From contig JANQMC010000024.1 of NCBI GenBank assembly GCA_028280305.1, positions 1 through 64,000 on the forward strand: a stretch of DNA of 64,000 nt, given 5' to 3'. This DNA is from Pelagibius sp. Lineage in GTDB: Bacteria > Pseudomonadota > Alphaproteobacteria > Kiloniellales > Kiloniellaceae. Below are positions 21,105 through 63,397 of the stretch, piece by piece. The notes beneath the pieces were generated by a model. That model ran no database searches and was not told the origin of the DNA. It worked only from the letters and a program-made list of their open reading frames with translations. The position numbers and the translations under genes were made by a program. Numbering within the stretch: the stretch's first letter is position 1; every line of letters begins with the position of its first letter.

Positions 21105-21241
21105 TAGAGCAGGTCCCTGTCGTATGGAATCGCTTTAGCGATCCATGCGACAGGGTGAATCTGCTCTAACTGTTTGATGGTGATCGGATTCACATGATTT
21201 GACGGAACAACAAATTGGTTCCGTCAAATCATGATCCGATC
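21105..21241 (+). repeat. Double-hairpin intergenic repeat, copy 1
   Basis: 137 bp between frmA and the S-formylglutathione hydrolase gene. First hairpin: arms TAGAGCAG/CTGCTCTA, then CCCTGTCG..ATGG paired with CCATGCGACAGGG and an apical ATCGC/GCGAT. A 13-base spacer containing TTTGATG leads to the second hairpin: outer GATCGGAT/ATCCGATC and inner CATGATTTGACGGAAC paired perfectly with its complement. A second copy in the opposite orientation is at 63262-63397. It encodes no protein and lacks terminator T tracts, but could affect the mRNA between the two genes. It resembles in style the mosaic palindromic repeats of Rhizobiales, though I cannot name the family. Confidence 0.9.
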
Positions 21242-21262
21242 TAGAGAGTATTCGGGGCGAGC

Positions 21263-22105
21263 ATGGACCTTACTATTGTCAGTCAGCAGCGCTGCTTTGA
21301 AGGCACGCAGGGATTCTACAGTCACGAGTCAGCGGTTTGCGGCGGCGTGATGAACTTCTCCGTCTTTCAGCCGCCGCAGGCGAAGGACGGGGCAAAGGTG
21401 CCTCTGGTGACCTTTCTCTCAGGCCTTACCTGCACGGAAGAGAACTTCACCACCAAAGCCGGCGCGCAACGCGTGGCAGCGGAACTGGGGATCATACTGC
21501 TGGTGCCGGATACCTCGCCGCGCGGTGCCGGCTATCCGGGCGAAGACAACGACTATGACTTCGGCAGCGGCGCCGGCTTCTACCTGGATGCCACAGAGGC
21601 CCCCTGGTCGGAACGCTATAAGATGTACAGCTACGTGACCCAGGAGTTACCCACCCTTATGGGTGAGCATTTCCCCGTCGACATGGAACGTCAGGGCATC
21701 TTCGGCCACTCCATGGGCGGGCATGGCGCCATCACCATCCATTTGAAGAACCCCGGCGTCTATCGCTCGGTCTCGGCCTTTGCGCCGATCTGCGCGCCCA
21801 GCCTTTGCCCCTGGGGGCGCAAGGCCTTTGCCGGCTATCTGGGCGACGACGAAGCGACCTGGGAAGACTACGACAGCTGCACCCTGATTCGCCGTCAGCC
21901 GTCCGACGCGCAGATCTTCATCGACCAGGGTGCGGAAGATCCCTTTCTCAGCGAGCAGCTTAAGCCCGACCTGCTGGTAGCCGCCTGTAAAGAGGCCGGC
22001 CAGCGCTTTGAGTTCCGCATGCAACCGGACTACGATCACAGCTATTACTTCATCCAGACCTTTGTCGAAGACCATCTGCGGCATCACGCGAAGGCCTTGG
22101 GTTAG
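21263..22105 (+). CDS. fghA: S-formylglutathione hydrolase
   Basis: 280 residues, second step of glutathione-dependent formaldehyde oxidation, giving formate and glutathione. Esterase-D family: nucleophile Ser150 in GHSMGGHGA, oxyanion region FLSGLTCTEENF, acid in QGAEDPFL and His in YDHSYYFIQ. Length and motifs are standard. It is downstream of frmA on the same strand, with the repeat element between them, so the two could be transcribed together or separately. Confidence 0.94.
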   Translation: MDLTIVSQQRCFEGTQGFYSHESAVCGGVMNFSVFQPPQAKDGAKVPLVTFLSGLTCTEENFTTKAGAQRVAAELGIILLVPDTSPRGAGYPGEDNDYDFGSGAGFYLDATEAPWSERYKMYSYVTQELPTLMGEHFPVDMERQGIFGHSMGGHGAITIHLKNPGVYRSVSAFAPICAPSLCPWGRKAFAGYLGDDEATWEDYDSCTLIRRQPSDAQIFIDQGAEDPFLSEQLKPDLLVAACKEAGQRFEFRMQPDYDHSYYFIQTFVEDHLRHHAKALG

Positions 22106-22119
22106 AGCATGTCCGAGTT

Positions 22120-23055
22120 ATGGAAGAAGAGGTCTACCGCAACCCGACGATAGACAAGCAGGCCCTCAAAGCGCTGTCGGAACGCAGCGATGCAAAGGGC
22201 TTGATGCAGCTCTGCGGACACCTTGCACTCCTGACTTTTACGACTGCCGCGGTTCTGCTCGCCGCGCATCCCTTGCTCTACGGCCCCGCCCTGCTGGCCC
22301 AGGGTGTCGCAATCATCTTTCTCTTCGCACCGCTGCATGAGTGCATTCACCGCACCGCTTTCCAGAACCGCCGGCTGAATGACCTTGTCGCGCGGGTCTG
22401 CGGATTTCTGCTGCTGCTGCCGGCCGACTACTTCCGCGCCTTTCATTTTCAGCATCACCGGCATACCCAGAACCCGGCGCAGGACCCCGAACTGGCGGGG
22501 CCGCCCATCACATCTTTGGCCGCCTATCTGACGCATCTTTCCGGACTGCCCTACTGGCGGGAGAGAACTTCTGCAATAGTCCGCCACGCCCTTGGCGGCA
22601 TCGATGAGGACTTCATCCCCGCGCGGCAAAAAGCCCGGATCATCGGTGAGGCGCGCTGGCACCTCGCCGCCTACTGCGTCCTGCTGGCCGGCAGTCTCGC
22701 CGCCGGATCAACGCTGCTGCTCAGCCTCTGGCTGCTGCCGGTGCTGCTGGGCCAGCCCTTCCTGCGCGCCTTCCTGCTGGCGGAGCACAGCGGCTGCCCG
22801 CAAACCGACGACATGCTGGTGAACTCGCGAACCACGCAGACCAACGCCGCGCTGCGCTGGCTCTGCTGGAACATGAACCGGCACAGCGCCCATCATGCTT
22901 TCCCGGCGCTTCCATTTCACGCTCTGCCCGAGGCCGATGCGATGCTGGGCGGAAAGGTGGTAACCCGCAGCAGAGGATATCTGACGGTGCAGCGCGACAT
23001 CCTGGCCGCGTTACGAAACCGGAGAGGCGATCAGGCCGGCAAGACTCTGTCTTAG
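22120..23055 (+). CDS. Fatty acid desaturase family membrane protein
   Basis: 311 residues with hydrophobic segments around 30-70, 95-105 and 185-215. The three histidine boxes of a di-iron membrane desaturase/hydroxylase are visible: HECIH 73-77, HFQHHRH 109-115 and HSAHH 255-259, with an additional EHSGC at 222-226. Substrate may be a fatty acid or other lipid; beta-carotene hydroxylases and alkane hydroxylases share the boxes but differ in the surrounding sequence. It starts 14 bp after fghA, so it may share its transcript; no functional link to formaldehyde is evident. Confidence 0.84.
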   Translation: MEEEVYRNPTIDKQALKALSERSDAKGLMQLCGHLALLTFTTAAVLLAAHPLLYGPALLAQGVAIIFLFAPLHECIHRTAFQNRRLNDLVARVCGFLLLLPADYFRAFHFQHHRHTQNPAQDPELAGPPITSLAAYLTHLSGLPYWRERTSAIVRHALGGIDEDFIPARQKARIIGEARWHLAAYCVLLAGSLAAGSTLLLSLWLLPVLLGQPFLRAFLLAEHSGCPQTDDMLVNSRTTQTNAALRWLCWNMNRHSAHHAFPALPFHALPEADAMLGGKVVTRSRGYLTVQRDILAALRNRRGDQAGKTLS

Positions 23056-23083
23056 GCCAAGCCTTCCTTAGGCCACGTTTCCC

Positions 23084-23557
23084 TTAGGCCACGTCTTCGC
23101 CGGCGACCAAGGCGGGGCCGACACCGATATCGCCGCGGATCTGGCCACCGGTCTTGATCATGATTTCCGCGTAGCGGATGGTACCGCTGACCCGGCCTGA
23201 CGCTTCGATCGTCAGCAGTCCGCGAACCGTGAGATCGCCGTCGAAATCCCCGGTGATGTTTGCCGTCTCGACGACAGCCCGACCGCGAAACACGCCGCCC
23301 GAACGGACCTTCAGATGGTCGGCGGTGAGCGAGGCCTCCACCCGACCCTCGACAACCAGTGTCTGGCAGGACTCGATCTCGCCTTTCACGAAAATACCGT
23401 TGCCGACGATCAAGGTGCCCTCGGGCCGCGCATCGGGTGACAAGGTCCGTTTCGTCAGATCAGGTTGCGCGAACCCAAGCGCAGTTTCCCCCGGCCCCGA
23501 TCCAAATGCGGTATCGCCCGCCGCAACCATGCGGCGCGGTTGAAATCTCTTCGCCAT
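23084..23557 (-). CDS. Bactofilin family cytoskeletal protein
   Basis: 157 residues from the ATG at 23557, which has GGAGAA upstream; an in-frame ATG at 23596 adds 13 residues. The central part (about residues 45-145) is the right-handed beta-helix of bactofilins, with repeated short strands such as GTLIVGNGIFVKGEIESCQ, LVVEGRVEASL and GDFDGDLTVRGLLTIEASG. N- and C-terminal tails are disordered, as usual. Bactofilins polymerise without nucleotide and localise cell-wall or stalk factors. It is convergent with the desaturase gene. Confidence 0.88.
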   Translation of the reverse strand: MAKRFQPRRMVAAGDTAFGSGPGETALGFAQPDLTKRTLSPDARPEGTLIVGNGIFVKGEIESCQTLVVEGRVEASLTADHLKVRSGGVFRGRAVVETANITGDFDGDLTVRGLLTIEASGRVSGTIRYAEIMIKTGGQIRGDIGVGPALVAGEDVA

Positions 23558-23718
23558 CGCTGCCCAATTCTCCCTATTGGCGGCTTTGCCGCTCATTTGT
23601 CACCCGTCTAGGCAAACACAGCCTGCGACCGGAGACAAGCAGGCTATCCACTGAAGGCAAAGATTCTCGATCTTTTTCGCGTCATTGGGGAGATCCGGGG
23701 GGGCACCCGGACGAGACC

Positions 23719-24243
23719 TTAAGGAGCGCCTGCCTGGTGCCCCTGAGCTTCGTCGGGCTGATCACCAACCCGGCTTCCATGCATAAAGACGGCGCCGCCC
23801 ATCAGCACATCGATCGACCGGCCGTCACTGGCAAGCGGCAGCAACAGGCGGTGGATTTCCCAGTGTTCGCGCCCGGCAACATGCATCTTGCCCTCGCGGT
23901 AACGCGGACCGCCGCCCCGCGCCACCTCGATATGGTGCTCCATCGGGATCCGAATACCGGCCCGTCTTTGGATATCGGCTATGGATTTGCCGCGCAGCGG
24001 CATGGAGAACGCATCTTCGACCTGACTGCCGGCAAGACGAAAGTGAAAATCCTCCGCATCGCCCACAACGTCGAGCAGGAAGACGTTGGGCAATAGGTCG
24101 GGAATCTCCACCGGATCGATGTCTTGCCGCGAGGGCAGAAGATCGCCCTCACAAAGCGCCCGCCAATAGGCGAAAAGCTTCTGCAGCTTGTTGTCCGGCA
24201 GGTCCGCCGGATCAAAAGCCTTCCCCACTGCAACGCCCCTCAT
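23719..24243 (-). CDS. PAS domain protein (PAS_5, PF07310-type)
   Basis: 174 residues. The fold begins FDPADLPDNKLQKLFAYWRA, then PVEIPDLLPNVFLLDVV and FRLAGSQVEDAF, the signature of the PAS_5 proteins common in alphaproteobacteria, followed by a C-terminal strand pair WEIHRLLLPLASDG. No output domain is attached, so it is a stand-alone small-molecule or signal-sensing module. It lies 139 bp downstream of the histidine kinase on the same strand, but a functional link is speculative. Confidence 0.82.
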   Translation of the reverse strand: MRGVAVGKAFDPADLPDNKLQKLFAYWRALCEGDLLPSRQDIDPVEIPDLLPNVFLLDVVGDAEDFHFRLAGSQVEDAFSMPLRGKSIADIQRRAGIRIPMEHHIEVARGGGPRYREGKMHVAGREHWEIHRLLLPLASDGRSIDVLMGGAVFMHGSRVGDQPDEAQGHQAGAP

Positions 24244-24382
24244 CTACCCCCAATGAGTGAGACTATATACTACATGTAGTGGGTTTGGCGAAAAACTTCT
24301 TGCGTCCAAGATGATTAGCACAGCCTACTATAAGCTGATTACGCAAGCTGCTGGCAACTGCCGTTGATGGCGGCCGGGGCCT

Positions 24383-26605
24383 CTAGGCGGACTTGCCGAT
24401 CACCTGCGGCGGGTCGAAGGAAGTCTCCAGCGGCGAGACGCGCTCCTTGGGAAAATCAATGCTGACGCAGGTTCCCTTATCCGCCTCGCTGGTCAACGAC
24501 AGGCTGCCGCCGTGCAGATCGATCAGCCGGCGGGTCAGCGGCAGACCAAGGCCCGTGCCCTCGTACTTCCGGCTCAACGAGGAATCGACCTGGCCGAAGG
24601 GTGCCATCGCCTTGGCAATATCTTCCTCGGCGATGCCGATCCCCGTGTCTTCCACCTGCACCCGCAGACCGCCGGTGCCGAGCAGGCGCGCACGGACAGA
24701 GACACGTCCGCCCGCATCGGTGAACTTCACCGCGTTGGACAGGAGATTGAGCATGATCTGCTTGACCGCGCGCGGATCGGCCTGCAGCCGGGGCAAGCCG
24801 GCGGGCATGTCGAGCACCAGATTGACACCGGCCTCCTCGGCCCGGTCCCGCATGATCCGGAAAGAAGCCTTGGTGGCGGCCTGCAGATCGATGGCCTCCT
24901 CGTGCAGTTCGAACTTGCCGGCCTCGACCTTTGAAAGATCGAGGATATCGTTGATCAGACTCAGCAAATGCGTGCCGCTGTCGTGGATGTCGATCGCATA
25001 CTCGCGATAACGCTGGTTGCCCATGGGGCCGAAGAGCTGATCCTTGATGATCTCCGAGAAACCGATGATGGCATTCAGCGGGGTCCGCAGTTCATGGCTG
25101 ACGTTGGCCAGGAAGTCGGACTTGGCGCGGCTGGCGAGTTCTGCTTCTTCCTTGGCGCTGCGTAGCTGGCGCCCGGCGCTGTAGCTGCCGGTCACGTCGT
25201 CGTAGGTCGCCAGCGAGCCGCCGCCCGGCATCGGGCGATGCAGAACATTGATCACCCGCCCGTTGGAGAGGAAGTCCTGCAGCTTGGCTTCCTTTGCACT
25301 TGCCGCGGCCGACATGCGGCGCTGGCGCATGGTGGCGGCCTGATCCCTGGTCAGCCCTTCCAGCTTGGCGGTGTAGTCCAGAATCTCCACGAGATCCGTT
25401 CCCGGCTGGCCCATCCCGGCCGGCAGGTTGTAGAGGTCGAGGAAACGCTGGTTGCAGATGATCAGGCGCTGATTGACGTCGTACATGGCCAGGCCCTGAA
25501 CCATGTTGTCCAGGGCGGCGTCCAAGAGGACGTTCTTGTGGCGCAGTTCCTCACCGATGCTGCGCAGTTCCGATTCCCGGCGCCGCAGTTCGGTGATGTT
25601 GGTGCTGATCACCACGAAGCCGCCGTCGGCGGTGCGCCGTTCGGCAACCCTGAACCACGCCCCGTCCCGCAGCTCGATCTCAAACGGCGGTCCGGGGTTG
25701 CGGAAGTGCTGAAGATGCTCCTCGACCCAGAGATGCCAGTTCTCCCCGGCCTGCGGGAAGTTCCCGGCTCCGGCCGCAGCGGTGACGATTTCCTCAAAGC
25801 GCATGCCCGGCACCAGAAGGTCTCGTGCTCCGGCATAAAGATCCCCATAGCGCCGGTTGCAGAGAACCAGCCGCTCGCCAGCATCGAAGAGGGCAAATCC
25901 GCCGGCAAGGGATTCAATGGACTCGCGCAGGCGCTGCTGCGCCGCCGCCGCCGCCAGTTCCGAGCGGCGCTCGCGGAAAATAAAGGCAACAAGAACCACG
26001 GTCAGTGAGGCCACGACGATCACGACCAAAATCAGGGCGCCCCGGAAGCGCTCCAGGTTGGCTGCTTCGGTCTGCAGGATCGCCAGCGCGGCACTGTTCG
26101 CCTCGCCGAACAGCTTGGCGATCTCCTGGCGTGCGGCACCGACCCGCTCCTGCGCCAGGTCGAGAACGACCTCGGAGTCCGGCGCCAAGCCCTGAACACC
26201 ATCGGTAAGCCAGAGTTTGAGGTCGCTCGCCACAGGTTTCAGGGTCGCATACATCGAGGCGATGCCGATCTGGCTGCTGAACTCGTAGGAGTCGTTGAGA
26301 TCCTCGATCCGCCGCTCGATCAGTTCGATCCGATCGACCACGGCCTGTCGATTATCCGCCGTCGGAGCGGTTCTCGCCTCGCGGATTGCATCTTGCAGAT
26401 AGACAAGGTCATCGATGATGAAGACAACGTCACGCTCCTGACGCAGCACCTCGACCGGCAACACCTGCTTCAGTTGCGAAATGCTGGCCTCGACATAGAG
26501 CACCAGGGCCGTCGTCCCGATCAACACCGCGGCAATAAATGCCGCGGGCCAACGCGAAAGCAACGGTCGCTTGGTTGTCTCTGTCCGGTTCATCTCATTC
26601 CGCAT
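24383..26605 (-). CDS. PAS-containing sensor histidine kinase
   Basis: About 740 residues. Two transmembrane helices (about 19-39 and 182-205) flank a 140-residue periplasmic sensor region; then two PAS domains (around 235-350 and 360-480), a HisKA domain with phospho-acceptor His504 in SHELRTPLN, and a HATPase domain with N (LLSNAVKFTDAGG), G1 (VEDTGIGI) and G2 (YEGTGLGL) boxes. No receiver domain and no response regulator nearby, so it is an orphan kinase of the PleC/DivJ-like architecture. The ATG 26605 or 26593 (the latter with GGAATGAG upstream) are the best starts; an upstream TTG at 26710 is unlikely. Confidence 0.9.
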   Translation of the reverse strand: MRNEMNRTETTKRPLLSRWPAAFIAAVLIGTTALVLYVEASISQLKQVLPVEVLRQERDVVFIIDDLVYLQDAIREARTAPTADNRQAVVDRIELIERRIEDLNDSYEFSSQIGIASMYATLKPVASDLKLWLTDGVQGLAPDSEVVLDLAQERVGAARQEIAKLFGEANSAALAILQTEAANLERFRGALILVVIVVASLTVVLVAFIFRERRSELAAAAAQQRLRESIESLAGGFALFDAGERLVLCNRRYGDLYAGARDLLVPGMRFEEIVTAAAGAGNFPQAGENWHLWVEEHLQHFRNPGPPFEIELRDGAWFRVAERRTADGGFVVISTNITELRRRESELRSIGEELRHKNVLLDAALDNMVQGLAMYDVNQRLIICNQRFLDLYNLPAGMGQPGTDLVEILDYTAKLEGLTRDQAATMRQRRMSAAASAKEAKLQDFLSNGRVINVLHRPMPGGGSLATYDDVTGSYSAGRQLRSAKEEAELASRAKSDFLANVSHELRTPLNAIIGFSEIIKDQLFGPMGNQRYREYAIDIHDSGTHLLSLINDILDLSKVEAGKFELHEEAIDLQAATKASFRIMRDRAEEAGVNLVLDMPAGLPRLQADPRAVKQIMLNLLSNAVKFTDAGGRVSVRARLLGTGGLRVQVEDTGIGIAEEDIAKAMAPFGQVDSSLSRKYEGTGLGLPLTRRLIDLHGGSLSLTSEADKGTCVSIDFPKERVSPLETSFDPPQVIGKSA

Positions 26606-26967
26606 AACGACGTCACGTTCCTTGGCCGCTCGACCTTCCGGTCGAAGAACCGCTTCGTGCACCTTTCGCGCCTCCCACCCCGACACATTTGGGTCAACAG
26701 GTGCGCGCAACAGTTGTTCGAAGTATCCTTTATCCTACCCACCGTCTCCCCCTTGCCGGGCCGATCTGATGCAGCTTCCCGGCGCATGGATGGATAAAGG
26801 AATCAATTACAAACAAAAACAGTTATTTATCGTTCTTTCTTGCAATCTCATAGAGTCTGATCCTAACAGTTTATTAATAGGAAAATGGCGTTAACAATTG
26901 GTAAAGGTCCTCATCCCTGATCAAGGGCAAAATTGGGGCAAACTTCCTAGAACCTGAGGAGAAAGCG
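26606..26967. other. Divergent intergenic region between sensor kinase and ppa
   Basis: 362 bp without a supported gene. The half nearer ppa (about 26790-26930) is clearly AT-rich against the surroundings (for example TTTATTAATAGGAAAATGGCG), as expected for a promoter region serving the pyrophosphatase gene. I could not fix a -35/-10 pair with confidence and see no strong hairpin or repeat. Confidence 0.5.
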
Positions 26968-27504
26968 TTGGATATCAGCAAGATCCCTGTGGGCACCAAC
27001 CCACCTTGGGACGTTAACGCGATCATCGAGGTGCCTCTGGGCAGCGTTCCGGTGAAGTACGAAATGGATAAACATTCCGGCGCGATCTTCGTCGATCGCT
27101 TTCTCCATACCGCAATGCATTATCCCCTGAACTATGGATTCGTGCCCCACACGCTTTCCAACGACGGCGACCCGGTCGACATCCTGGTGGTAAACTCGGT
27201 GCCTGTCATTCCCGGGGCCGTGGTGCGGGTGCGCCCGATCGGTGTGCTGATCATGGAGGACGAGGCCGGCGAAGATGAAAAGCTCTTGTCGGTGCCGGTC
27301 GACGACCTTCACCCTTTCTACGCCAACGTTTCCTCTTTCCGCGACCTGCCGAAAATCCTGCTCGACCAGATCGCCCATTTTTTCGGGCATTACAAGGATC
27401 TGGAGCCGGACAAGTGGGTCAAGGTGAAACGCTGGGGTGAAGCCGACGAAGCCTGCAAGCTGATTGAGCAGGCGATCATTGAGGCGGAAAAAGAGAACAG
27501 CTGA
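26968..27504 (+). CDS. ppa: Inorganic pyrophosphatase (family I)
   Basis: 178 residues. Hydrolyses pyrophosphate and so drives biosynthetic reactions. Family I motifs: IEVPLGSVPVKYEMDK at the N-terminus, HYPLNYGFVPHTL and the metal-binding DGDPVDILVV. The start codon is TTG, supported by GAGGAG 8 bp upstream and by the position of the homologous N-terminus. Followed one base later by the D-cysteine desulfhydrase-like gene, so translation is probably coupled. Confidence 0.96.
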   Translation: MDISKIPVGTNPPWDVNAIIEVPLGSVPVKYEMDKHSGAIFVDRFLHTAMHYPLNYGFVPHTLSNDGDPVDILVVNSVPVIPGAVVRVRPIGVLIMEDEAGEDEKLLSVPVDDLHPFYANVSSFRDLPKILLDQIAHFFGHYKDLEPDKWVKVKRWGEADEACKLIEQAIIEAEKENS

Positions 27505-27505
27505 G

Positions 27506-28528
27506 ATGGCCGCGACGGACCGTTTGAGGGCCGCGCTCGCGGCCCAGCCCCGCGTCAGTCTTGCCCACCTTCCGACGCCAATCGAGCCCCTGCCCCGCTT
27601 GTCGGCCGCGTTGGGTGGCCCGCGCATTCTGGTGAAACGCGATGATTGCACCGGCCTCGGCCTCGGCGGCAACAAGACGCGGAAGCTCGAGTTTCTGATG
27701 GCGGAAGCACAGCAGCAGGGCGCCGACACGGTCATCACGACCGGGGGTATCCAATCCAACCACGTGCGCCAGACGGCGGCAGCAGCGGCGAAACTGGGCT
27801 TGGCCTGCGAACTGGTTTTGACGCGGGTCGTGCCCTGGGGTGGCGATGATTACGAGCGGAGCGGCAATATCCAGCTGGACCGCCTGTTCGGCGCCACCGT
27901 CCACCTTCACGACGGCGGCACGGACCGAAACACCGCAATGGCGGCGTTGGCTACCGCGCTGAAAGCCGACGGCAAAAGGCCCTTCACGATCCCGACCGGC
28001 GGCTCCAACGTGACCGGTGCCTTGGGCTATGCCGCCGCGGCCCTTGAGATTTTCGAACAGCTCCACACCTTGGGCGTCAAACCCAAAGCGATCCTGCATG
28101 CCTGTTCGAGCGGCGGCACCCAGGGCGGCCTCAGCGCCGGCCTCGCCGCGATCGACCCGGCGCTGCGGGTCGTCGGTGTGGACGTGGATGCCAACCCGGA
28201 ATCCGTCGAGGGTACGGTTCGCCAGCTCGCCGAAGAAGTCTGGGCCCTGCTGAATCTGGATGGAGCACTGCCACCGGACTGTATCACGCTGGAGTCCGGT
28301 TACGCCGGCGAGGCCTATGGGTTGCCGACCACGGCCATGCGTGAGGCGGTAAACCTCTGTGCTGAGCTGGAGGGACTGCTGCTCGACCCGGTTTACAGCG
28401 GCAAGGCCATGGCCGGTCTCATCGGTATGATCCGCGCGAATCGTTTCACGAAGGATGACACGGTCGTCTTCCTTCACACCGGCGGCACCCCGGCGCTCTT
28501 TCCTTACCGTGATGCTTTGGAAAGCTGA
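27506..28528 (+). CDS. dcyD: D-cysteine desulfhydrase / ACC deaminase family PLP enzyme
   Basis: 340 residues, PLP fold type II. The Lys in LGLGGNKTRKLEF is the expected Schiff-base residue; ITTGGIQSNHVRQTAA binds the substrate and SSGGTQGGLSAGL the phosphate. Closest in my reading to D-cysteine desulfhydrase (D-Cys to pyruvate, H2S and ammonia); 1-aminocyclopropane-1-carboxylate deaminase is the main alternative. An upstream in-frame start inside ppa is unlikely. It begins one base after the ppa stop. Confidence 0.85.
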   Translation: MAATDRLRAALAAQPRVSLAHLPTPIEPLPRLSAALGGPRILVKRDDCTGLGLGGNKTRKLEFLMAEAQQQGADTVITTGGIQSNHVRQTAAAAAKLGLACELVLTRVVPWGGDDYERSGNIQLDRLFGATVHLHDGGTDRNTAMAALATALKADGKRPFTIPTGGSNVTGALGYAAAALEIFEQLHTLGVKPKAILHACSSGGTQGGLSAGLAAIDPALRVVGVDVDANPESVEGTVRQLAEEVWALLNLDGALPPDCITLESGYAGEAYGLPTTAMREAVNLCAELEGLLLDPVYSGKAMAGLIGMIRANRFTKDDTVVFLHTGGTPALFPYRDALES

Positions 28529-28644
28529 GTGCCCAACTCGCATCTCGCAAGGTTTCAGTCAGCGATGGCCGATCTGCCCACCATTAAGTCAGGAAACACC
28601 GAGCATCAGCGCCGCCGTCGGAATCAAAGCCTGAAAGTGCCCCA

Positions 28645-29652: not shown

Positions 29653-29657
29653 TTCGG

Positions 29658-30194: not shown

Positions 30195-30427
30195 AGTCTC
30201 ACTGAAGCAGCTGGGTCCCGGGAACGTAGCTGGGTCTTGCGGCTGTGGCTGGGATTCGCGAAAGTGCGAGCCTGCCTCAGTGTGATGCGCCTGAGGGAGG
30301 CTGTCCATATCCGTGGCTCCCGTCGGGCCCGGCAAGGCCGAATACAATCGGGCCGCGGACGGATCGGACCACGGATGGAACCATTTTACCGGCGCGCCGG
30401 CGTGCCGCCGCTGTTGGGGGTGTTTGA

Positions 30428-31933: not shown

Positions 31934-31956
31934 GCGCTCACAACCGCCGCAAAGAA

Positions 31957-31993
31957 AAGGCCCCGTCTGCGGAAGCGGACGGGGCCTTTGTCT
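31957..31993. terminator. Bidirectional terminator between convergent genes
   Basis: Stem AAGGCCCCGTC / GACGGGGCCTT with GGAA at the tip, flanked by A-rich sequence on the left and TTGTCTTTG on the right. It lies between the crystallin-like gene and the convergent TPR lipoprotein gene and can end both transcripts. Confidence 0.85.
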
Positions 31994-32010
31994 TTGAGGG
32001 ATGCAGTCGT

Positions 32011-47269: not shown

Positions 47270-47345
47270 TGGCGACCCCAACGGGATTCGAACCCGTGTT
47301 GCCGGCGTGAAAGGCCGGTGTCCTAGGCCTCTAGACGATGGGGTC
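47270..47345 (-). tRNA. tRNA-Glu (anticodon TTC)
   Basis: 76 nt on the minus strand, ending with an encoded CCA. Acceptor GACCCCA/TGGGGTC; anticodon arm CCGGCCTTTCACGCCGG with anticodon TTC; T arm ACGGGTTCGAATCCCGT. D loop contains AGAGG-type bases. All arms pair as read, so the gene is intact. Confidence 0.96.
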
Positions 47346-50295: not shown

Positions 50296-50300
50296 CGCGT

Positions 50301-53856: not shown

Positions 53857-54012
53857 GGCCTGGCAAAGAACCAATCTGAGAGCGGGCACGGCCGCTGACG
53901 GCTGCCGTTAACCCCGTAAACCTAAGAAGCGTCAAAACCGATCTGGGCAACAACCTGCCCGGGCGTCCTTCAGCACGCTTCCTATCGGGTGCTTCTTGTA
54001 CCCAGGAGGCCG

Positions 54013-54819: not shown

Positions 54820-55022
54820 CTCGTTTCATCCCTGCTTGGCCGACAATCCCGGTCTTCCACCTCAATCGCCCGGCCTGCGCCACTTTCGGCTGCGCTGTCT
54901 CCGCTATTGTACAGACCGCACCCCCCTATTACCTTGCGGGGCAATTCAGCGATCCTGCGTCCGAGCCCTGATTCTTTTTCCAGGGCGGCGCGCACGTTTC
55001 TAGGCAGGATAAGGAAGCCGCC

Positions 55023-56828: not shown

Positions 56829-56839
56829 GCACCTCGGCT

Positions 56840-56865
56840 ACGGCGCGGTGTTTCATCTGCGCCGT
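56840..56865. terminator. Possible bidirectional terminator between phaC and gamma-carbonic anhydrase gene
   Basis: Perfect 7-bp inverted repeat ACGGCGC/GCGCCGT with a 12-base loop that contains the stop codon of the minus-strand gene. No long T tract on either side, so termination is uncertain. Confidence 0.35.
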
Positions 56866-57410
56866 TCTGCCAGGTAGCTTGCCGCCGTTTCCTGATAGTG
56901 CTCAGCCAGGTAGGGAAGATCGGCCAGCTCCTGTTCTGATAGCGCGCGCATCAGCTTGGCGGGACGCCCTCCCCAAAGCTCTCTCTTGGCCACCTTCTTG
57001 CCCGGCGTCACCAGCGCGCCGGCCGCCACCATCGCCTGACCCTCTACGACGGCACCGTCCATGACGACGGCGGCCATGCCGATGAAGGCGTCGCTCTCTA
57101 TGGTGCAGGCATGGATGAGGACCTGGTGCCCGACGGTGACGTTGTCGCCGATCAGGGTCGGCATGCCGCCGCCGGTCTGCCGGTAGTCGCCGTTCCGGTC
57201 GTGATTCACGTGAACGATGGTGCCGTCCTGCAGGTTGGTCCCCGCCCCCACCCGGATCTTGTTCACATCGCCGCGCAGCACACAGCCGTACCAGATTGAG
57301 GCCCGTGGCCCGATCTCCACATCACCGATGATGGTCGCCGTCTCCGCGACAAAAGCATCGGGATGGATCCGCGGGGTGACACCGCGATAAGGAAGAATCA
57401 GGCTGGGCAT
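56853..57410 (-). CDS. Gamma-carbonic anhydrase family protein
   Basis: 185 residues from ATG 57410 (with AGAGG upstream); the longer open frame has no matching start context. Left-handed beta-helix with IWYGCVLRGDVNKIRVGAGTNLQ split over the hexapeptide repeats; zinc ligands His67/His70 and His95/His100 are in place. Related to YrdA/PaaY. Activity as a carbonic anhydrase is not guaranteed for this subgroup. Confidence 0.9.
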   Translation of the reverse strand: MPSLILPYRGVTPRIHPDAFVAETATIIGDVEIGPRASIWYGCVLRGDVNKIRVGAGTNLQDGTIVHVNHDRNGDYRQTGGGMPTLIGDNVTVGHQVLIHACTIESDAFIGMAAVVMDGAVVEGQAMVAAGALVTPGKKVAKRELWGGRPAKLMRALSEQELADLPYLAEHYQETAASYLAERRR

Positions 57411-57841
57411 GGAGATAACCTCTGCTTGAAGGTGGCGGGGCAAGCCGCTGTTGGGACGCCAGATTATCTCAGCGACTATCCGGCCGGAAATCCTCTTCCA
57501 ACGGCGCTTCCCCAGACACCGATTTTGCTTCGCAAACAAATGGCAGGGCAAATGGGCCGCAGGCGCCACAGTCCGTCTTCCCAGCCGCGCGCGTAGACTT
57601 ACCGCCTTCCTGACTCGCACCTCTACAAAATCCTGATATTTATGCGTTATCTCTGACGGAAACTCATTTTGAGACTTTGCGATGCCCTTCTCTCGGGATC
57701 GCGGGCAAGAAACTGATTGCATCATAACGTGATGTTATTACATTACATTTCATCCCGAAGGAAAGGCCTTCGGGTTCATTCTGCGCGGCTGCGCATCCTG
57801 CAGATTCTGACAACTGGTCACCAATGACCAAGGACAAGACC
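57411..57841. other. Divergent region holding the Zur-like site
   Basis: 431 bp between gamma-carbonic anhydrase (minus) and the CobW gene (plus). Besides the Zur-like palindrome at 57729-57746 it has no supported gene; other open frames are antisense shadows with no ribosome site. An AT-rich patch at 57710-57760 marks the promoter area. Confidence 0.5.
57729..57746 (+). promoter_or_regulatory. Zur-like operator upstream of CobW-family gene
   Basis: GTGATGTTATTACATTAC, matching its own reverse complement at 14 of 18 positions, in keeping with the ATGTTATAACAT-type palindromes of alphaproteobacterial Zur. It lies between a possible -35 (TTGCAT at 57717) and -10 (TACATT at 57739), about 95 bp upstream of the chosen ATG. 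Zinc-dependent repression is the inference; regulator not seen. Confidence 0.55.
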
Positions 57842-59059
57842 ATGATTGCCGAAGCCTCCCGCCTTCCCGTCACCGTACTCTCCGGCTTTCTTGGGGCCGG
57901 CAAGACGACACTTCTCAACCGCGTGCTGAACAATCGCGATGGCCGGCGTGTCGCCGTCATTGTCAACGATATGTCCGAAGTGAACATCGACGCCGATCTG
58001 GTACGTGCGGACACCGAACTGAGCCGCACCGATGAAACACTGGTCGAGATGTCGAACGGCTGCATTTGCTGCACCTTGCGTGATGATCTCCTCGCAGAAG
58101 TGCGGCGCCTCGCCGAAGAGGGGCGTTTCGACTATCTGCTGATCGAGTCAACCGGCATTTCTGAGCCTTTGCCTGTGGCGGCGACCTTCGACTTCCGAGA
58201 CGAAGAGGGCGTGAGTCTGTCGGATGTTGCCCGCCTTGATACCATGGTGACCGTCGTCGACGCCGTAAATCTACTCCATGACTACTCCAGTCACGACTTC
58301 TTGCGGGACCGTGGCGAAACTCTGGGAGAAGAAGATGATCGAACGCTTGTACACCTTCTCACCGACCAGATCGAATTCGCTGATGTGGTCATTCTCAACA
58401 AGGTGGCCGATGCGGAGCCGCAGCAGGTGGACGCCGCGCGCAAGATCATCCGCAGCCTGAATGCGGATGCAAAGATCATCGAGACCAACCATTCCAAAGT
58501 CGGCACGGATGAAATCCTCGATACAGGGTTGTTCGACTACGAGAAAGCGCATGAACATCCGATGTGGGCCAAGGAACTCTACGGCTTCGCCGATCACGTG
58601 CCGGAAACCGAAGAATACGGGGTCGCAAGCTTTGTCTACCGCGCCCGTCGTCCGTTCGTGCCGGAACGCATCCACGCCCTATTGAACGGAGCCCTTCCCG
58701 GCGTGATCCGCGCCAAAGGCCATTTCTGGATCGCCACGCGGCCTGATTGGGTCGTGGAGTTCTCGCTCGCAGGCGCTTTGTCGTCGATCAGTCCACTTGG
58801 CACCTGGTGGGCGGCGGTACCGAAAGAGCGTTGGGTGGAACATGAAAGCGCGCGTGCTTACATGCGTGATCACTGGCAGGAGCCCTGGGGCGACCGTCGG
58901 CAGGAGATCGTCTTCATCGGCAGCGGCATAGACTGGCAGGCGCTAAAGGCGCGGCTGGATGCCTGTCTCCTTCCTGATCAGCATTCGCAGGGCCCTGACG
59001 ATCTCCCGGAGTTGCCAGACCCCTTCCCGGCCTGGCGGCGCGTGGCGGCCACGGGCTGA
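57842..59059 (+). CDS. CobW/COG0523 GTP-binding metallochaperone, ZigA-like
   Basis: 405 residues from ATG 57842, which has AAGGAC 7 bp upstream; the ATG at 57824 has none. P-loop GFLGAGKT 15-22, metal-binding CxCC at 74-77 (GCICCTL), then [11 protein letters not shown] and a CobW_C domain near 270-385. Such GTPases deliver zinc (or other metal) to client enzymes under zinc shortage. The Zur-like box supports a zinc role rather than cobalamin. Ends in a stop inside a GACACTCA/TGAGTGTC hairpin. Confidence 0.88.
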
Positions 59060-59081
59060 CACTCACCCAAGAATGAGTGTC
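59058..59081. terminator. Inverted repeat at the CobW stop codon
   Basis: Perfect 8-bp arms GACACTCA / TGAGTGTC with loop CCCAAGAA, overlapping the TGA stop of the CobW gene. No T tract follows, so it may be a weak or Rho-assisted terminator or a processing site. Confidence 0.4.
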
Positions 59082-59269
59082 CCCTGCTCAAGCGCAGAGT
59101 CGGCGTCTCCGGGGCTTGCTGGTTCCGCTGAGGCGAACAGGCCGACAGACAGCGTTTGGACCACCGAACGCGGGACGGCTTCGCTGGCCTTGGCGCTGCC
59201 GTGCTCGTCGATACCGTGTTGAAAGCACCCGAGACCTAAGTCGTCAGAATATGCGAAAGGCCCCCATTT

Positions 59270-60760
59270 TTACGTGACTGTAAACTGCCCCATCATGCCG
59301 CGGTCTTCGTGTTCCAGGATATGGCAATGATACATATAGGGGAACTGGTCTGTGGCAACGTGGTCAAAGCGCACGACAATCTCAGACCAATCGTCGTCGT
59401 CCAGGACAACGGTATCCTTCCATCCCCGCTGGTCTTCCGGCGCAGTTGCACCTTCCATTTGATCAATGAGAAAAGAGCAACCATGCGCATGAAAGGGATG
59501 AGCGCCCATATCGGAGCGGATACGCCATCGCTCCCATTCGCCCAGATTGACCCTTTCGTTGATCACGTTCATGTCCATTGATGCACCGTTGATGGCCATA
59601 TCCATTGCAGCGTGGCCGTGATGACCTGAGGCCCCACCACCGTGCTCCATGGTTAGTTCAAACTCACGGACACGTACGACATCGCTCGCCTTGGGGCGGA
59701 TAATGTTGACGAGCTTTTCAGGCAGCGGGACAAGGTTTGGGACAAGCGAGGTATCGACTTCCAAGGTCAACGACGGCATCTCAGCCGCAACCTCTGACGA
59801 GCCCAGCACCCCCAACATGCCGCTGACAATACCCTCTTCAGCCTCGTCAACGTCATCTTCGAACAGTGTGAACAGATCCGCGGATTTGCCATCTGAAAGA
59901 TCAACAATGATCTCGCAACGTTCCCCAGGGGACATTTCCATTGTTGTCATGAGAACAGGCGCTTCGAGCAAACCACCATCTGTTGCGATTTTGTGGAACA
60001 CCCGATTATCTGCAAAAGCGACGATGTAAAATCGGGCATTGGCGCCATTGAGTAGACGTAGACGCACCCTACCAGCAGGGACTTTGGCAACCGGAGCAAT
60101 GGCGCCATTTATCACCACGGTATCGCCATACCAACCGTCTTCATCTGCGTCCATCAAGGAATAGACGAGACGGCCTTGCTCATCGAAAGTCCGATCTTGA
60201 ATGACAATGGGTATATCATCGATGCCATATCGCCGAGGAAGATCCATTGCATCGGTTTCGTCATCATCGATCAGGATCATTCCTGCAAGGCCACGATAGG
60301 TTTGCTCGCCTGATTTGCCGTGCGTATGAGAGTGATACCAGCAGGTAGCAGAGGGCTGAACGATCGATAGCTTGGGGGACCAGCGATCACCCGGCGCAAT
60401 TTCCAGCTGCGGTCCTCCATCAACTTCACCCGGTACATGGAACCCATGTCCATGTACAGCCACCCCCTCATTCAGGGTGTTGTGATAGTTCAGATTGAGT
60501 TCCCTGTTCTTTCGCGCCCGGATCGTCGGTCCAAGATAGTCTTGGTTGATCCCGAGGGTAGGCGTCATGATACCGGGCTTGAACGACCAGAGCCCCTCGC
60601 GCAGTTGCAGATGAACAGGTGCCTCATTGGTACCATCAATCAAGGTGGGGATTGGCAACTCGGGCCGGCGGGAATTCGACCAAGCATTGCCAGCGAATGC
60701 CGTACCAACGAAGGCAGCACTACCTGTAAGAAAGCGTCGACGCGATAGGATCACGGGCAC
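59270..60760 (-). CDS. Multicopper oxidase (CueO-like), Tat-exported
   Basis: 496 residues. Tat motif SRRRFL at 6-11. All four copper-binding motifs are present: HGHGFHV, HSHTHG, HPFHAHG and HCHILEHEDRGMM (type 1 copper with axial Met). A His/Met-rich segment (HHGHAAMDMAINGASMDMN) lies near residue 375-395, as in CueO. Start is a GTG at 60760 with GAGAGG upstream. Composition is less GC-rich than the surroundings, suggesting acquisition. Copper detoxification or oxidation of an organic or metal substrate is the inferred role. Confidence 0.9.
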   Translation of the reverse strand: MPVILSRRRFLTGSAAFVGTAFAGNAWSNSRRPELPIPTLIDGTNEAPVHLQLREGLWSFKPGIMTPTLGINQDYLGPTIRARKNRELNLNYHNTLNEGVAVHGHGFHVPGEVDGGPQLEIAPGDRWSPKLSIVQPSATCWYHSHTHGKSGEQTYRGLAGMILIDDDETDAMDLPRRYGIDDIPIVIQDRTFDEQGRLVYSLMDADEDGWYGDTVVINGAIAPVAKVPAGRVRLRLLNGANARFYIVAFADNRVFHKIATDGGLLEAPVLMTTMEMSPGERCEIIVDLSDGKSADLFTLFEDDVDEAEEGIVSGMLGVLGSSEVAAEMPSLTLEVDTSLVPNLVPLPEKLVNIIRPKASDVVRVREFELTMEHGGGASGHHGHAAMDMAINGASMDMNVINERVNLGEWERWRIRSDMGAHPFHAHGCSFLIDQMEGATAPEDQRGWKDTVVLDDDDWSEIVVRFDHVATDQFPYMYHCHILEHEDRGMMGQFTVT

Positions 60761-60916
60761 TAAACCTCTCGTTTCGCAATAGTTTGAAAGCAGGCTGACT
60801 CCCTGCTCGCTTCCCAGTTCAGTAAGGCAAGTTCGGCCATTCCGCTATCGGACAAATGCCCGATTGCGCAGGAGGTTTCATAGTGCTTATGTCCGATTTC
60901 AACGCGTTGGGGGACC

Positions 60917-61495
60917 GTGAGGAGACAAGAGTTGGGAAGAAGTGACGTGTTCGATGAATTTGGGCAGCTTTCGATCGGCCAAAAATCACTGGTTGTTTTT
61001 GTCCTGATCGTTTTCGCCACAAGCGCCATCGAAATAGTCTCGGAGTTCTTCGCTGGCGGCTCGCTTATCTCAATGTGGGATGACGTCCTCTGGTTCGCCT
61101 TGAGCGCAGCTCTTGTGTTGTTCTATTTGCATCAGCGCAGACTGAGTTTGCGGGAGATTCATCAGCTTCGCGCAGCACTGGAAAATGCGCGCGGAAAACT
61201 GGTGAAACTCGATAGCAGCTCGAGCGAAATCACAAACCAATACCGAGCCGTCATGCAAAAGCAATTTGATCACTGGAAGCTCTCTGCCAGCGAGCAAGAC
61301 GTCGTGATCGGGATACTCAAGGGGCTCTCATTTAGGGAAATTGCTGGACTACGGGAAACGCGTGAAAAAACTGTCCGGCAACAGGCCTCATCGGTTTATC
61401 GCAAAGCGGGTGTTTCAAGTCGAAACGAACTCACTGCGTGGTTCTTTGAGGACCTACTTGTCCCCCCGTCGACCAAGACAGAAACCATCGAGTGA
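60917..61495 (+). CDS. Membrane-anchored LuxR-type regulator
   Basis: 192 residues. Two transmembrane helices in the N-terminal half (about 22-43 VVFVLIVFATSAIEIVSEFF and 54-72) are followed by a coiled stretch and a LuxR HTH at about 120-185 (LSASEQDVVIGILKGLSFREIAGLRETREKTVRQQ, V-x-x-x-x-V-S-R-N-E-L). It has no receiver or ligand domain. Start is a GTG at 60917; TTG 60932 or GTG 60947 with better ribosome sites are possible. Divergent from the multicopper oxidase, so likely its regulator. Confidence 0.78.
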   Translation: MRRQELGRSDVFDEFGQLSIGQKSLVVFVLIVFATSAIEIVSEFFAGGSLISMWDDVLWFALSAALVLFYLHQRRLSLREIHQLRAALENARGKLVKLDSSSSEITNQYRAVMQKQFDHWKLSASEQDVVIGILKGLSFREIAGLRETREKTVRQQASSVYRKAGVSSRNELTAWFFEDLLVPPSTKTETIE

Positions 61496-61543
61496 GATGG
61501 AGACAAGGTCCTGGCCTGACCAAGGACTAACCGCGGCTTTGGC

Positions 61544-61579
61544 AAAGAAATACGGCGCCCCCATAACCTGGGGACGCCG
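61544..61579 (-). terminator. Terminator of the rplM-rpsI operon
   Basis: CGGCG(C)CCCC ... GGGG(A)CGCCG with a 7-base loop; the A-rich side (CAAAGAAATA) reads as a T tract (TATTTCTTTG) on the minus strand. It lies 33 bp beyond the rpsI stop. Confidence 0.8.
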
Positions 61580-61612
61580 CATAGATCGCTACCTCTGTTT
61601 TGTAAGTCTCGG

Positions 61613-62104
61613 TTACCGCTTGGAGAACTGGAAGCTCCGGCGGGCCTTGGCGCGGCCGTACTTCTTACGCTCCACAACACGGGAGTCGCGGGTCAGGAAG
61701 CCGCCGCGCTTCAGCACCGGGCGCAGGCCCGGCTCGTAAAGCGTCAGGGCTTTGGAAATGCCATGGCGAACGGCACCGGCCTGACCGGAAAGACCGCCGC
61801 CTCTAACCGTGCAGACCACGTCGAACTGGCTGGTGCGGTCGGCAACCACAAAGGGTTGGTCCAGGATCATACGCAGAACCGGCCGTGCGAAGTATTCGGT
61901 CTGGTCCTTACCGTTTACCGTCACCTTGCCGCTGCCAGGCTTGATCCAGACACGGGCAACCGCATCCTTGCGCTTACCGGTCGCATAGGAACGGCCCTGG
62001 GCGTCGCGCTGGGGCTCCGCCGTCTCAGCGGCCGCTTCCGGGGTCACGCCGGTTGCTTCGGCCAGATCGCCCAGATCACTCAGGGTTTGAGTCTCATCGG
62101 CCAT
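61613..62104 (-). CDS. rpsI: Ribosomal protein S9
   Basis: 163 residues; S9 core from about residue 35 with [27 protein letters not shown] (in two parts) and the universal C-terminal basic tail [11 protein letters not shown]. An N-terminal extension of about 30 residues is common in alphaproteobacteria. Two bases after rplM on the same strand, so co-translated. Confidence 0.97.
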
Positions 62105-62106
62105 GC

Positions 62107-62571
62107 TTACTGGCTCCTCTTGTTCTTCGCATTCATCGCCGCGAGATCGAGCGTCTCGGGCTGCTGAGCCTCATGGGGATGCTCACCGCCGACGTAAACC
62201 TTCAGGTTCCGCATCTGCTGCCGGCCAAGGCTGTTGCGCGTGATCATGCGCTCCACCGCCTTGATCACCACCCGCTCCGGATGGTCGCCATCCAGAACCT
62301 GGCCCGCGGTGCGCTGCTTGATGCCGCCCGGATGGCCGGTGTGCCAGTAGTAGATCTTGTCGGTCGTCTTCTTGCCGGTCAGCTTGACCTTCTCGGCATT
62401 GATGATGATGACGTTGTCGCCGCAGTCCATGTGCGGCGTGAAGCTCGGCTTGTGCTTGCCGCGCAGGATCTTGGCCACCTGCGAGGCCAAACGGCCGAGG
62501 ACGAGCCCATCGGCATCGATCAGAAACCACTTCTTCTCGATATCCGACGGTGTGGCGGAAAAGGTTTTCAT
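62107..62571 (-). CDS. rplM: Ribosomal protein L13
   Basis: 154 residues. ATG 62571 aligns with the standard MKTF start of L13; a GTG 4 codons earlier is the only alternative. Family motifs: [38 protein letters not shown] and [14 protein letters not shown]. First gene of the rplM-rpsI operon; promoter listed separately. Confidence 0.97.
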
Positions 62572-62709
62572 CGTGCCAATCACTGTCCGAATGAATAGGA
62601 GATGGAGCGTCGGCCCGGGCCGGCTCCGAAGGCCGGTTTTTATGAGGCGGGAGGTGTTCTGTCAATCGCAAAAAGCGCCGTTGTGCGAATAGGTTAGATT
62701 TACGGTATT

Positions 62710-62738
62710 ATAATACCTCACTGATAACTCATTCACAA
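62710..62738 (-). promoter_or_regulatory. Sigma-70-type promoter for rplM-rpsI
   Basis: On the minus strand TTGTGA (62738-62733), 17 bp spacer, TATTAT (62715-62710), then a leader of about 130 bases to the rplM ATG. The -10 lies inside the perfect palindrome GGTATTATAATACC (62704-62717). Typical ribosomal-protein promoter position, but no experimental start is known here. Confidence 0.6.
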
Positions 62739-62787
62739 AGAAAGAGAATTCTTAACCACCCCGCGCACCCCTGCAAAGCCCCAGGAA

Positions 62788-63225
62788 TCAGCCCTTTGGC
62801 GGGATCGAATAGGTCGCGGTAACGTGGGAAATCGGTGCTTCCTGGCCTCCGGAGGTCAGAAAGACCTCCCCGACCGCCAGACGTTTGCCCAGCTTGATGA
62901 GCCGGCAGTCGGCCTGGATATCGCCGGGCAGCGGCTTGTGCAGAAAATTGATCGAAAGACTGGTGGTCACCGCCAGGGGTACGTTACCGATGGCCCCGAG
63001 GACGGCGGCATAGACCGCGAAATCGCCCAGCGCCATCTGCGCGGGCCCGGAGACGGTACCGCCGGGGCGCACATGGTCCGCACTGGCGGGCAGCCGCGCC
63101 CTTGCCGTGCCGTAGCCGATTTCCTCGGTGACGAAGCCGTATATCTTCTGAAAAGGGGCCGACTCGTCGAGGAGCCGATTGAACTCCTCCAGGGTGATGC
63201 GGGGGGCCTGGCTTGAGTAGTCCAT
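62788..63225 (-). CDS. PaaI-type hotdog thioesterase
   Basis: 145 residues from ATG 63225; the open frame extends upstream into the repeat element and is not used. Single hotdog fold with GYGTARARLPASADHVRPGGTVSGP (in parts), DFAVYAAVLGAIG and TTSLSINFLHKPLPGD, the 4HBT/PaaI pattern; the catalytic-like Asn/Asp in DH-x-RPGGT is present. Substrate is a CoA ester. Divergent from the enoyl-CoA hydratase gene across the second repeat copy. Confidence 0.84.
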   Translation of the reverse strand: MDYSSQAPRITLEEFNRLLDESAPFQKIYGFVTEEIGYGTARARLPASADHVRPGGTVSGPAQMALGDFAVYAAVLGAIGNVPLAVTTSLSINFLHKPLPGDIQADCRLIKLGKRLAVGEVFLTSGGQEAPISHVTATYSIPPKG

Positions 63226-63261
63226 CTGGATGACGTCTTCCTTCTTGGATATCCTGTCCTG

Positions 63262-63397
63262 GATCGGATCATGTTTTGACGGAACCACTTCGTGGTTGCG
63301 TCAAAACATGTGAATCCGATCGGCATCAAATAGTTAGAGCAGATTCACCGGGTTGGATGAATCGCTCACGCGATTCATCCAACCCGGATCTGCTCTA
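63262..63397 (-). repeat. Double-hairpin intergenic repeat, copy 2 (inverted)
   Basis: 136 bp, reverse orientation of copy 1 at 21105-21241. Read on the minus strand it begins TAGAGCAG, has an 18-bp perfect stem CCGGGTTGGATGAATCGC with loop GTGA, then CTGCTCTA, spacer with ATTTGATG, and the second hairpin GATCGGATTCACATGTTTTGACG ... CGTCAAAACATGATCCGATC. Flanks and tips match copy 1, while central stem bases differ but pair again. Confidence 0.9.

What the first reader, a model, noticed from the sequence alone, without database searches (positions are those of the whole stretch)
21105..63397. Two inverted, covarying double-hairpin repeats 42 kb apart
The 137-bp element after frmA and the 136-bp element upstream of the thioesterase gene are the same two-hairpin unit in opposite orientation. 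Terminal bases (TAGAGCAG...CTGCTCTA, GATCGGAT...ATCCGATC) and the apical ATCGC/GCGAT are conserved, but the central stem of hairpin 1 (CCCTGTCG.ATGG against CCGGGTTGGATG) and one pair of hairpin 2 (CATGATTTG against CATGTTTTG) change on both arms so that pairing is kept. Paired changes in each stem point to selection for structure or to a mobile palindrome family. Seen in sequence; its nature is inferred.
Basis: seen in the sequence. Interest (0 to 1): 0.72.

Follow-up and report, generated by a model that had tools for sequence, protein, structure and literature searches.

The report
Double-hairpin IS630 mini-transposon family
The two repeats are copies of a small parasitic DNA element, folded as two hairpins, that an IS630-type transposon enzyme appears to paste into the rare four-letter site CTAG, often the last letters of a gene; both it and its likely parent transposons carry conserved sites for a cell-cycle DNA-methylating enzyme.

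Summary
Both repeats are real: 140-141 bp double hairpins in opposite orientation, 86% complementary over 118 nt. They belong to a family with at least 38 places in the own genome, hit in 13 of 23 genomes of its bacterial family; stem pairs covary. It is mobile: neither window copy is at the congeners' orthologous sites I aligned, and 7 of 9 queried insertions of a sister genome have an empty counterpart, 4 showing exactly one CTAG that became CTAG at both ends. A RAYT helper is not supported. The ends match an IS630-family insertion sequence of a congener, left end to hairpin 1, right end to hairpin 2. Best reading: a non-autonomous IS630 element (MITE) of CIR-like double-arm design. Unexpectedly, it keeps three GANTC (CcrM methylation) sites, and alphaproteobacterial IS630 relatives pack GANTC into their left 100 nt (27/kb against 0.27/kb elsewhere; two or more in 22 of 23), unlike IS630s from other bacteria (0 of 6). 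CcrM-gated transposition is a testable inference. No intact helper was found in the own genome.

The parts
21104..21244 (+). Copy A, whole element including terminal CTAG at both ends (H1->H2 orientation), between frmA (name from the finding) and the next plus-strand gene
21105..21168 (+). Copy A hairpin 1 (family consensus matches IS630 left end)
21182..21241 (+). Copy A hairpin 2 (outer arm matches IS630 right end)
21104..21107 (.). CTAG target copy, left
   Evidence: target rule
21241..21244 (.). CTAG target copy, right
   Evidence: target rule
21127..21131 (.). GANTC (GAATC), hairpin 1 apical stem
   Evidence: sequence; position conserved in 43 of 46 copies
21157..21161 (.). GANTC (GAATC) straddling the hairpin 1 bulge
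   Evidence: sequence; position conserved in 41 of 46 copies
21187..21191 (.). GANTC (GATTC) straddling the hairpin 2 bulge
   Evidence: sequence; position conserved in 41 of 46 copies
63259..63398 (-). Copy B, whole element, opposite orientation, ends CTGG and CTAA
63262..63321 (-). Copy B hairpin 2
63335..63397 (-). Copy B hairpin 1

Best explanation
The element is a non-autonomous, about 140-bp MITE of an alphaproteobacterial IS630 (Tc1/mariner-group) clade related to ISRel6. An IS630-type transposase acting in trans cuts at the ends (CTAG)AGCRGATC and inserts at the TA of a CTAG site, leaving CTAG on both sides; whether the duplication is formally TA or CTAG cannot be told from the sequence. 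Hairpin 1 is the IS left end followed by an inverted copy of itself; hairpin 2 is the same for the right end. CTAG is rare in the window outside stop codons and intergenic DNA, and CTAG is its own reverse complement, so an insertion rebuilds the stop codon of the neighbouring gene and does little harm. Shown: copies, folding, covariation, empty sites with single CTAG, matching ends. Inferred: trans-mobilisation, snap-back origin of the hairpins, and a role for the CcrM (GANTC) sites in timing.
For: At least 38 places in the own genome; 13 of 23 family genomes, own genome included. Window copies absent at the aligned orthologous sites of 5 (copy A) and 6 (copy B) congeners. Seven of 9 queried G018 insertions have an empty counterpart in G020; L181, L183, L187 and L190 show exactly one CTAG, and in all four that CTAG ends a frame open for 460 codons or more in the empty genome. 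Two G016 copies are identical over 142 nt in different flanks. The G021 IS (1054 bp; NCBIfam IS630, Pfam DDE_3) has ends CTAGAGCGTTTC; its left end aligns with hairpin 1 and its right end with hairpin 2 of two family consensus sequences, 0 of 1000 shuffles each, and beyond the CTAGAGC tag 1 and 0 of 500. In 22 of 23 IS630 relatives both ends start [C/T]TAGAGC; the other has CTAGAGT on one side (ends were sought with a TAG[A/G]G pattern or picked from inverted repeats, so part of this is by construction). In 15 of 30 own-genome copies a flanking gene's TAG stop is the element's terminal CTAG, 3 on both sides. IS630 preference for the TA of CTAG is in a title by Tenzen and Ohtsubo 1991, seen in the reference list of PMC2170065.
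Against: No match to the G021 transposase in the own genome (86.6% complete), G016, G018, G020 or G022, and no PF13358 match in those four congeners, although G016 copies look recent; the own genome has one PF13358 fragment without such ends. The end match beyond the tag is strong only for a subset: 9 of 23 IS right ends to hairpin 2 and 4 of 23 left ends to hairpin 1 at <=5 of 500 shuffles, with crossed pairings reaching that in 2 and 4 of 23. With single window copies the left end scores less clearly: copy A hairpin 1 4 and hairpin 2 2 of 1000, copy B hairpin 1 2 of 1000; the right end keeps 0 of 1000 to hairpin 2 in both. At L180, L186 and L192 the empty site reads CTGA, TTAG or a gap. Stop-codon association: 15 of 30 copies against 7 of 30 window CTAG sites (p 0.06), or 7 of 22 if sites inside genes are set aside (p 0.26).
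Confidence: 0.85

Rival explanations
1. REP/BIME-type element moved by a RAYT (HUH tyrosine transposase) as a single-stranded hairpin.
For: Two inverted hairpins with an outer tetranucleotide and a bulge near the foot resemble a REPIN in outline (resemblance recalled).
Against: No PF01797 match in G016, G018 or G021, which have 140, 55 and 61 R1 hits; the own-genome match has LPDRYLLVV where HxH is expected (by eye). Units are about 60 nt, not 20-40. The insertion leaves CTAG on both sides. Ends match IS630. Other genomes with copies, such as G022, do have PF01797 matches.
Confidence: 0.04
2. A host-useful structured element (CcrM-site reservoir, transcription terminator or 3'-UTR stabiliser, as proposed for CIR or REP sequences) whose structure is kept by selection after insertion.
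For: Covariation; 14 of 30 copies lie between convergent genes; three GANTC sites conserved (mean 97.1% against 85.0% for the other stem columns).
Against: Positions are often not shared even between close genomes: 6 of 18 fetched G018 copies have a counterpart among the 16 fetched G020 stretches, and 7 of 9 queried others have an empty site. G019 has no hit and G017 only 8. Collapsed and half-deleted copies persist. Arm-to-arm copying can also make paired changes (recalled).
Confidence: 0.15
3. MITE of another DDE family with YTAR or CTAG-type targets (IS5/IS427 or IS701).
For: A 4-bp CTAG duplication is formally possible; that these families use such targets is recalled, from no call.
Against: IS630 ends match beyond the tag. 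I did not search for these other families, so their absence is not shown.
Confidence: 0.06
4. A chance duplication of one palindrome within the window.
For: None found.
Against: At least 38 genomic places and hundreds of hits in relatives.
Confidence: 0

Closest known systems
RUP of Streptococcus pneumoniae (MITE proposed to be moved by IS630-Spn1)
   Same: Short non-coding element, TA at termini, ends shared with an IS630-family IS, many copies (PMC2229807, passages).
   Different: 107 bp; according to that review, repeats other than CIR form one stem-loop from their two ends. Here there are two independent hairpins and CTAG targeting. RUP sequence was not compared.
CIR elements (CcrM-associated intergenic repeats) of Caulobacter and Brucella
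   Same: Two long arms joined by a linker, conserved GANTC, intergenic, TA at termini (PMC2229807, section 7 and table passage).
   Different: About 110 bp, GANTC at a terminal loop of one arm, mobility unresolved. Here three GANTC sites, two at bulges, and a named likely transposase family. Sequence relation not tested; Chen and Shapiro 2003 is not held.
ISRel6-like IS630 insertion sequences
   Same: TAGAGC ends, CTAG or TTAG flanks; ISRel6 of Rhizobium etli begins TTAGAGCGGATCATTTC, close to the element's outer arm.
   Different: Autonomous, about 1050 bp with a transposase; the ends of the G021 relative do not fold better than shuffles (z -1.4 and -0.9).
Br-REP1 of Bradyrhizobium
   Same: Palindromic repeat in overlapping 3'-UTRs of convergent genes, three stem-loops (PMC5082802, passages).
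   Different: Core palindrome CCGGAATCTCGAGATTCCGG; no IS630 link in the passages seen.

Membership tests
IS630-derived MITE | Ends similar to those of an IS630-family IS | tested here: met
   G021 IS left end to hairpin 1, right end to hairpin 2; strong for a subset of the 23 IS only
IS630-derived MITE | Target TA duplicated on insertion | tested here: met
   one CTAG empty, CTAG on both sides when filled, exact in 4 of 7 empty sites; TA versus CTAG duplication not separable
IS630-derived MITE | Dispersed copies with lineage-specific positions | tested here: met
IS630-derived MITE | Mobilised in trans by the transposase | not testable with these tools
   Needs an experiment; no intact helper found in the own genome
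CIR element | Two long hairpin arms joined by a linker | tested here: met
CIR element | Conserved GANTC site | tested here: met
   three fixed positions in 43, 41 and 41 of 46 copies
CIR element | GANTC at or in a terminal loop of one arm | tested here: inconclusive
   One GANTC is in the apical stem near the loop; the other two straddle the bulges
CIR element | Sequence homology to CIR1-CIR4 | not tested
   Sequences not at hand; the paper is not held
REP/BIME with RAYT | 20-40 bp palindrome with GTAG or CGTC tag | tested here: not met
   About 60-nt hairpins with CTAG; definition from title and abstract start of PMC3733652 in the listing
REP/BIME with RAYT | RAYT (Y1 HUH transposase) in genomes rich in copies | tested here: not met
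   no PF01797 match in G016, G018, G021; some other genomes with copies do have one

The most novel reading that the evidence does not exclude
Transposition of a widespread alphaproteobacterial IS630 clade and its double-hairpin MITEs is gated by the cell cycle through CcrM. Up to three GANTC sites sit in the IS left end up to the transposase start and are nearly excluded from the rest of the element; the MITE carries three of its own, two of them at the hairpin bulges. Methylation state after fork passage would switch transposase expression or end binding, the CcrM counterpart of Dam control of IS10 (recalled), and would also explain why CIR-type repeats carry GANTC.
Probability: 0.4. Interest if true: 0.85.

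Novelty: new variant of a known kind. Interest (0 to 1): 0.62.

Why it matters
A 2007 review (PMC2229807, section 7) says that CIR elements only partly resemble MITEs and that more information is needed on how they move. An element of the same design here has a likely transposase family, a target site seen in empty and filled form, and a reason why it sits at gene ends: CTAG is rare, often a stop codon or intergenic, and the insertion rebuilds it. The same data show that an IS630 clade found on many rhizobial plasmids concentrates CcrM sites in its left end and nearly avoids them elsewhere. That makes cell-cycle control of transposition in Alphaproteobacteria directly testable with laboratory strains.

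Tried and rejected
RAYT helper: searched and not supported. Rfam at gathering thresholds: only a tRNA in the window. Same element on plasmids: no blastn match to one copy at E <= 0.001. Hairpins bounded by TAGAGC in 50-kb stretches of three rhizobial or methylobacterial plasmids: none, so generality of the MITE outside the family was not shown. The solitary TAGAKCRGATC tags of G019 that I fetched (11 of the 17 listed) show no hairpin partner by eye; those in G000 are partly real remnants and partly chance. A first empty-site comparison with diverged congeners showed absence but could not give the target. IS630 presence does not track copy number among today's genomes. Rows dropped: 3 of 12 unshared G018 insertions were left out of the query (L179, L185, L193), and 2 of the 9 queried found no G020 match (L178, L194); my notebook entry 3 wrongly says 10 queried. 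Of 20 alphaproteobacterial plasmid IS630 loci, 4 (L429, L434, L442, L443) were left out because the pattern TAG[A/G]G did not find both ends; the ends of the other 16 were found with that pattern. In one search CTAGAGC ends were recognised by eye among the inverted repeats of 8 of 30 loci (7 distinct elements, one of them the G021 IS). Alignment A3 is a chosen set of 46 that leaves out copies with loop insertions, near-duplicates and some degenerate copies. Gene calls come from my own codon-score script.
Full report
Observation. The repeat finder reports one dominant inverted pair, 118 nt at 86% complementarity, 42 kb apart. Copy A (21104-21244) lies between frmA and the next plus-strand gene. 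Copy B (63259-63398, minus strand) lies between divergent genes, upstream of the thioesterase (gene names from the finding, not searched here). Both fold as two hairpins joined by about 12 nt, with z-scores of -12.0 to -14.5.

Copy number. A DNA search of the own genome (4.99 Mb, 182 contigs, 86.6% complete) returned dozens of places. A covariance model from 25 copies finds 38 distinct places at E <= 5e-10; 150 of 1175 candidates were scored, so this is a lower bound. In the same taxonomic family 13 of 23 genomes are hit, the own one included. In the own genus the hit counts (both strands, 140 candidates scored per genome, so several hits per place) are 99, 140, 8, 55, 0, 53, 61 and 78; nine genomes of one sister genus have none. 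Contig lengths identify several of these: G016 is Pelagibius litoralis DSM 21314 and G004 is Denitrobaculum tricleocarpae R148. The window therefore comes from a Pelagibius-like bacterium, probably Kiloniellaceae by the names of related records.

Structure. On 25 own-genome copies, 18 pair cells change on both sides against 2.4 in shuffles. On 46 chosen copies from 11 genomes it is 140 against 42.9, with 96.1% of cells paired, and 12-20 when partners are slid. This is real covariation. It does not by itself prove selection, because replication can copy one hairpin arm from the other (recalled). Some copies have lost the 3-nt bulge in a way that fits this (L023 and L027), while most keep it.

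Mobility and target. Orthologous sites in congeners lack the element: five aligned for copy A and six for copy B. The close pair G018/G020 gave the target. Of 18 G018 copies fetched, 6 are shared with the 16 fetched G020 stretches. Nine of the 12 others were queried as joined flanks with one CTAG, and seven have an empty site in G020. Four are exact: X-CTAG-Y empty, X-CTAG-[element]-CTAG-Y filled. The other three read TTAG, CTGA or a gap. In the four exact cases the CTAG ends a reading frame that is open for 460 to 525 codons in the empty genome, so it is very likely a pre-existing stop codon that the insertion rebuilds. In the own genome 15 of 30 copies have a flanking gene that stops in the terminal CTAG, three on both sides; no predicted gene spans a copy, though two predicted genes reach into one (L012, L023). 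CTAG occurs 0.5 times per kb in the window against 3.4 expected from base composition. Outside the two copies, 7 of 30 sites are stops, 8 lie in genes and 15 are intergenic. The excess of stop-codon insertions over these sites is not significant (p 0.06, or 0.26 without the in-gene sites), so rarity of CTAG plus loss of harmful insertions may be enough to explain it. Two P. litoralis copies are identical over 142 nt, which suggests recent movement.

Helper. A RAYT is not supported. A scan for IS630-type transposases (PF13358) over the family's 23 genomes gave its best match in an IS of congener G021. It is 1054 bp, has CTAG at both ends, begins CTAGAGCGTTTC on both sides, and starts at the stop codon of an ORF that looks like an endonuclease gene by eye. 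Its two ORFs match the NCBIfam IS630 model, the second above the cut-off. Its left end aligns with hairpin 1 of the family consensus over 39 nt and its right end with hairpin 2 over 26 nt. Beyond the shared CTAGAGC tag, 1 and 0 of 500 shuffles reach these scores, while the crossed comparisons give 10 and 106. With single window copies the left-end match is weaker and for copy A not specific to hairpin 1. Relatives were found in 18 of 61 genomes of the order and on 781 plasmid records; among the closest annotated ones is ISRel6 of Rhizobium etli. Of 23 IS630s with both ends taken, all begin [C/T]TAGAGC on the left; on the right 22 do and one has CTAGAGT. For the 16 plasmid ones the ends were sought with TAG[A/G]G, and 4 further loci without it were dropped, so this uniformity is partly built in. 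The hairpins thus look like IS ends extended by inverted copies of themselves; a snap-back origin is inference.

CcrM sites. The element holds GANTC at three fixed alignment positions, in 43, 41 and 41 of 46 copies. These columns are 97.1% conserved against 85.0% for the other stem columns. The own genome encodes a CcrM-like methylase (377 aa, RAMA domain, E 3.7e-159 to CcrMI, 6pbd), and all 8 genus genomes have a PF01555 methylase frame of 365-396 aa with E <= 1e-65; RAMA was checked only in the own genome. In the 23 alphaproteobacterial IS630s, GANTC occurs 27.4 times per kb in the left 100 nt and 0.27 per kb in the rest; 22 of 23 have two or more, 18 three or more, and the Methylobacterium one has none. 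Seven permuted control motifs range from 0.4 to 8.7 per kb on the left and from 1.6 to 4.1 in the rest. Six IS630s from hosts outside the Alphaproteobacteria (two gammaproteobacteria, four cyanobacteria) have none in the left 100 nt; one of them, from Azotobacter, shares the CTAGAGC ends (p 1.5e-5, not corrected for shared ancestry). Against this, two of the six have one GANTC within 160 nt upstream of the transposase, and in one (L450) no gene is annotated and I set the position by hand. The 23 share ancestry, the outside sample is small, and lack of CcrM in those hosts is assumed, so this is strong pattern evidence and not proof of function.

Relation to known kinds. The design is that of CIR elements: two arms, a linker and GANTC (PMC2229807, section 7 read). 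The review says their mobility is unresolved. The transposition mode is that proposed for RUP with IS630-Spn1 (same paper, passages). IS630 preference for TA in CTAG is in a title by Tenzen and Ohtsubo 1991, seen in the reference list of PMC2170065. My paper searches listed no paper whose title or abstract start reports this repeat in Pelagibius or CcrM control of IS630; the library holds open-licence papers only, and most listed papers were seen as titles and abstract starts.

Weak points. No intact helper was found in the own genome or in P. litoralis. TA and CTAG duplication cannot be told apart. CIR homology was not tested. The effect of copies on neighbouring genes is unknown.

Noticed in passing
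L242:976-1075 and left ends of L386, L388-L390, L393, L398, L424-L441: IS630 left ends of Alphaproteobacteria hold mostly two or three GANTC sites (GAATC..GATTC..TGATTCA) ahead of or at the transposase start (22 of 23), and the rest of the IS is nearly free of GANTC; six IS630s from other bacteria have none in the left 100 nt.
   Followed up: partly
L123, L143, L125 (G000:C62:31424, C151:28012, C73:37055): Collapsed elements of 20 bp, CTAGAGCAGATCCGATCTAG or near it, as expected from deletion between the GATCC repeats of the two outer arms.
   Followed up: partly
L267:101-242: In this P. litoralis copy hairpin 2 is inverted in place, with the bulge on the outer arm.
   Followed up: no
L011, L047, L048: Convergent gene pairs in which both predicted genes stop in the element's terminal CTAGs; before insertion the two stop codons may have overlapped in one CTAG.
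   Followed up: no
L158, L160 (G022): Single-hairpin derivatives: hairpin 1 joined directly to the right-hand end ATCCGATCTAG.
   Followed up: no
L031 (G000:C108): Lone Y1_Tnp-like gene with an apparently degenerate HUH motif and a C-terminal helix-turn-helix-like stretch (by eye).
   Followed up: no
L242:1400-1520: The G021 IS630 transposase is split in two frames at a run of eight A, possibly programmed frameshifting.
   Followed up: no
window 47273-47345: tRNA gene on the minus strand, the only Rfam match in the window at gathering thresholds.
   Followed up: no
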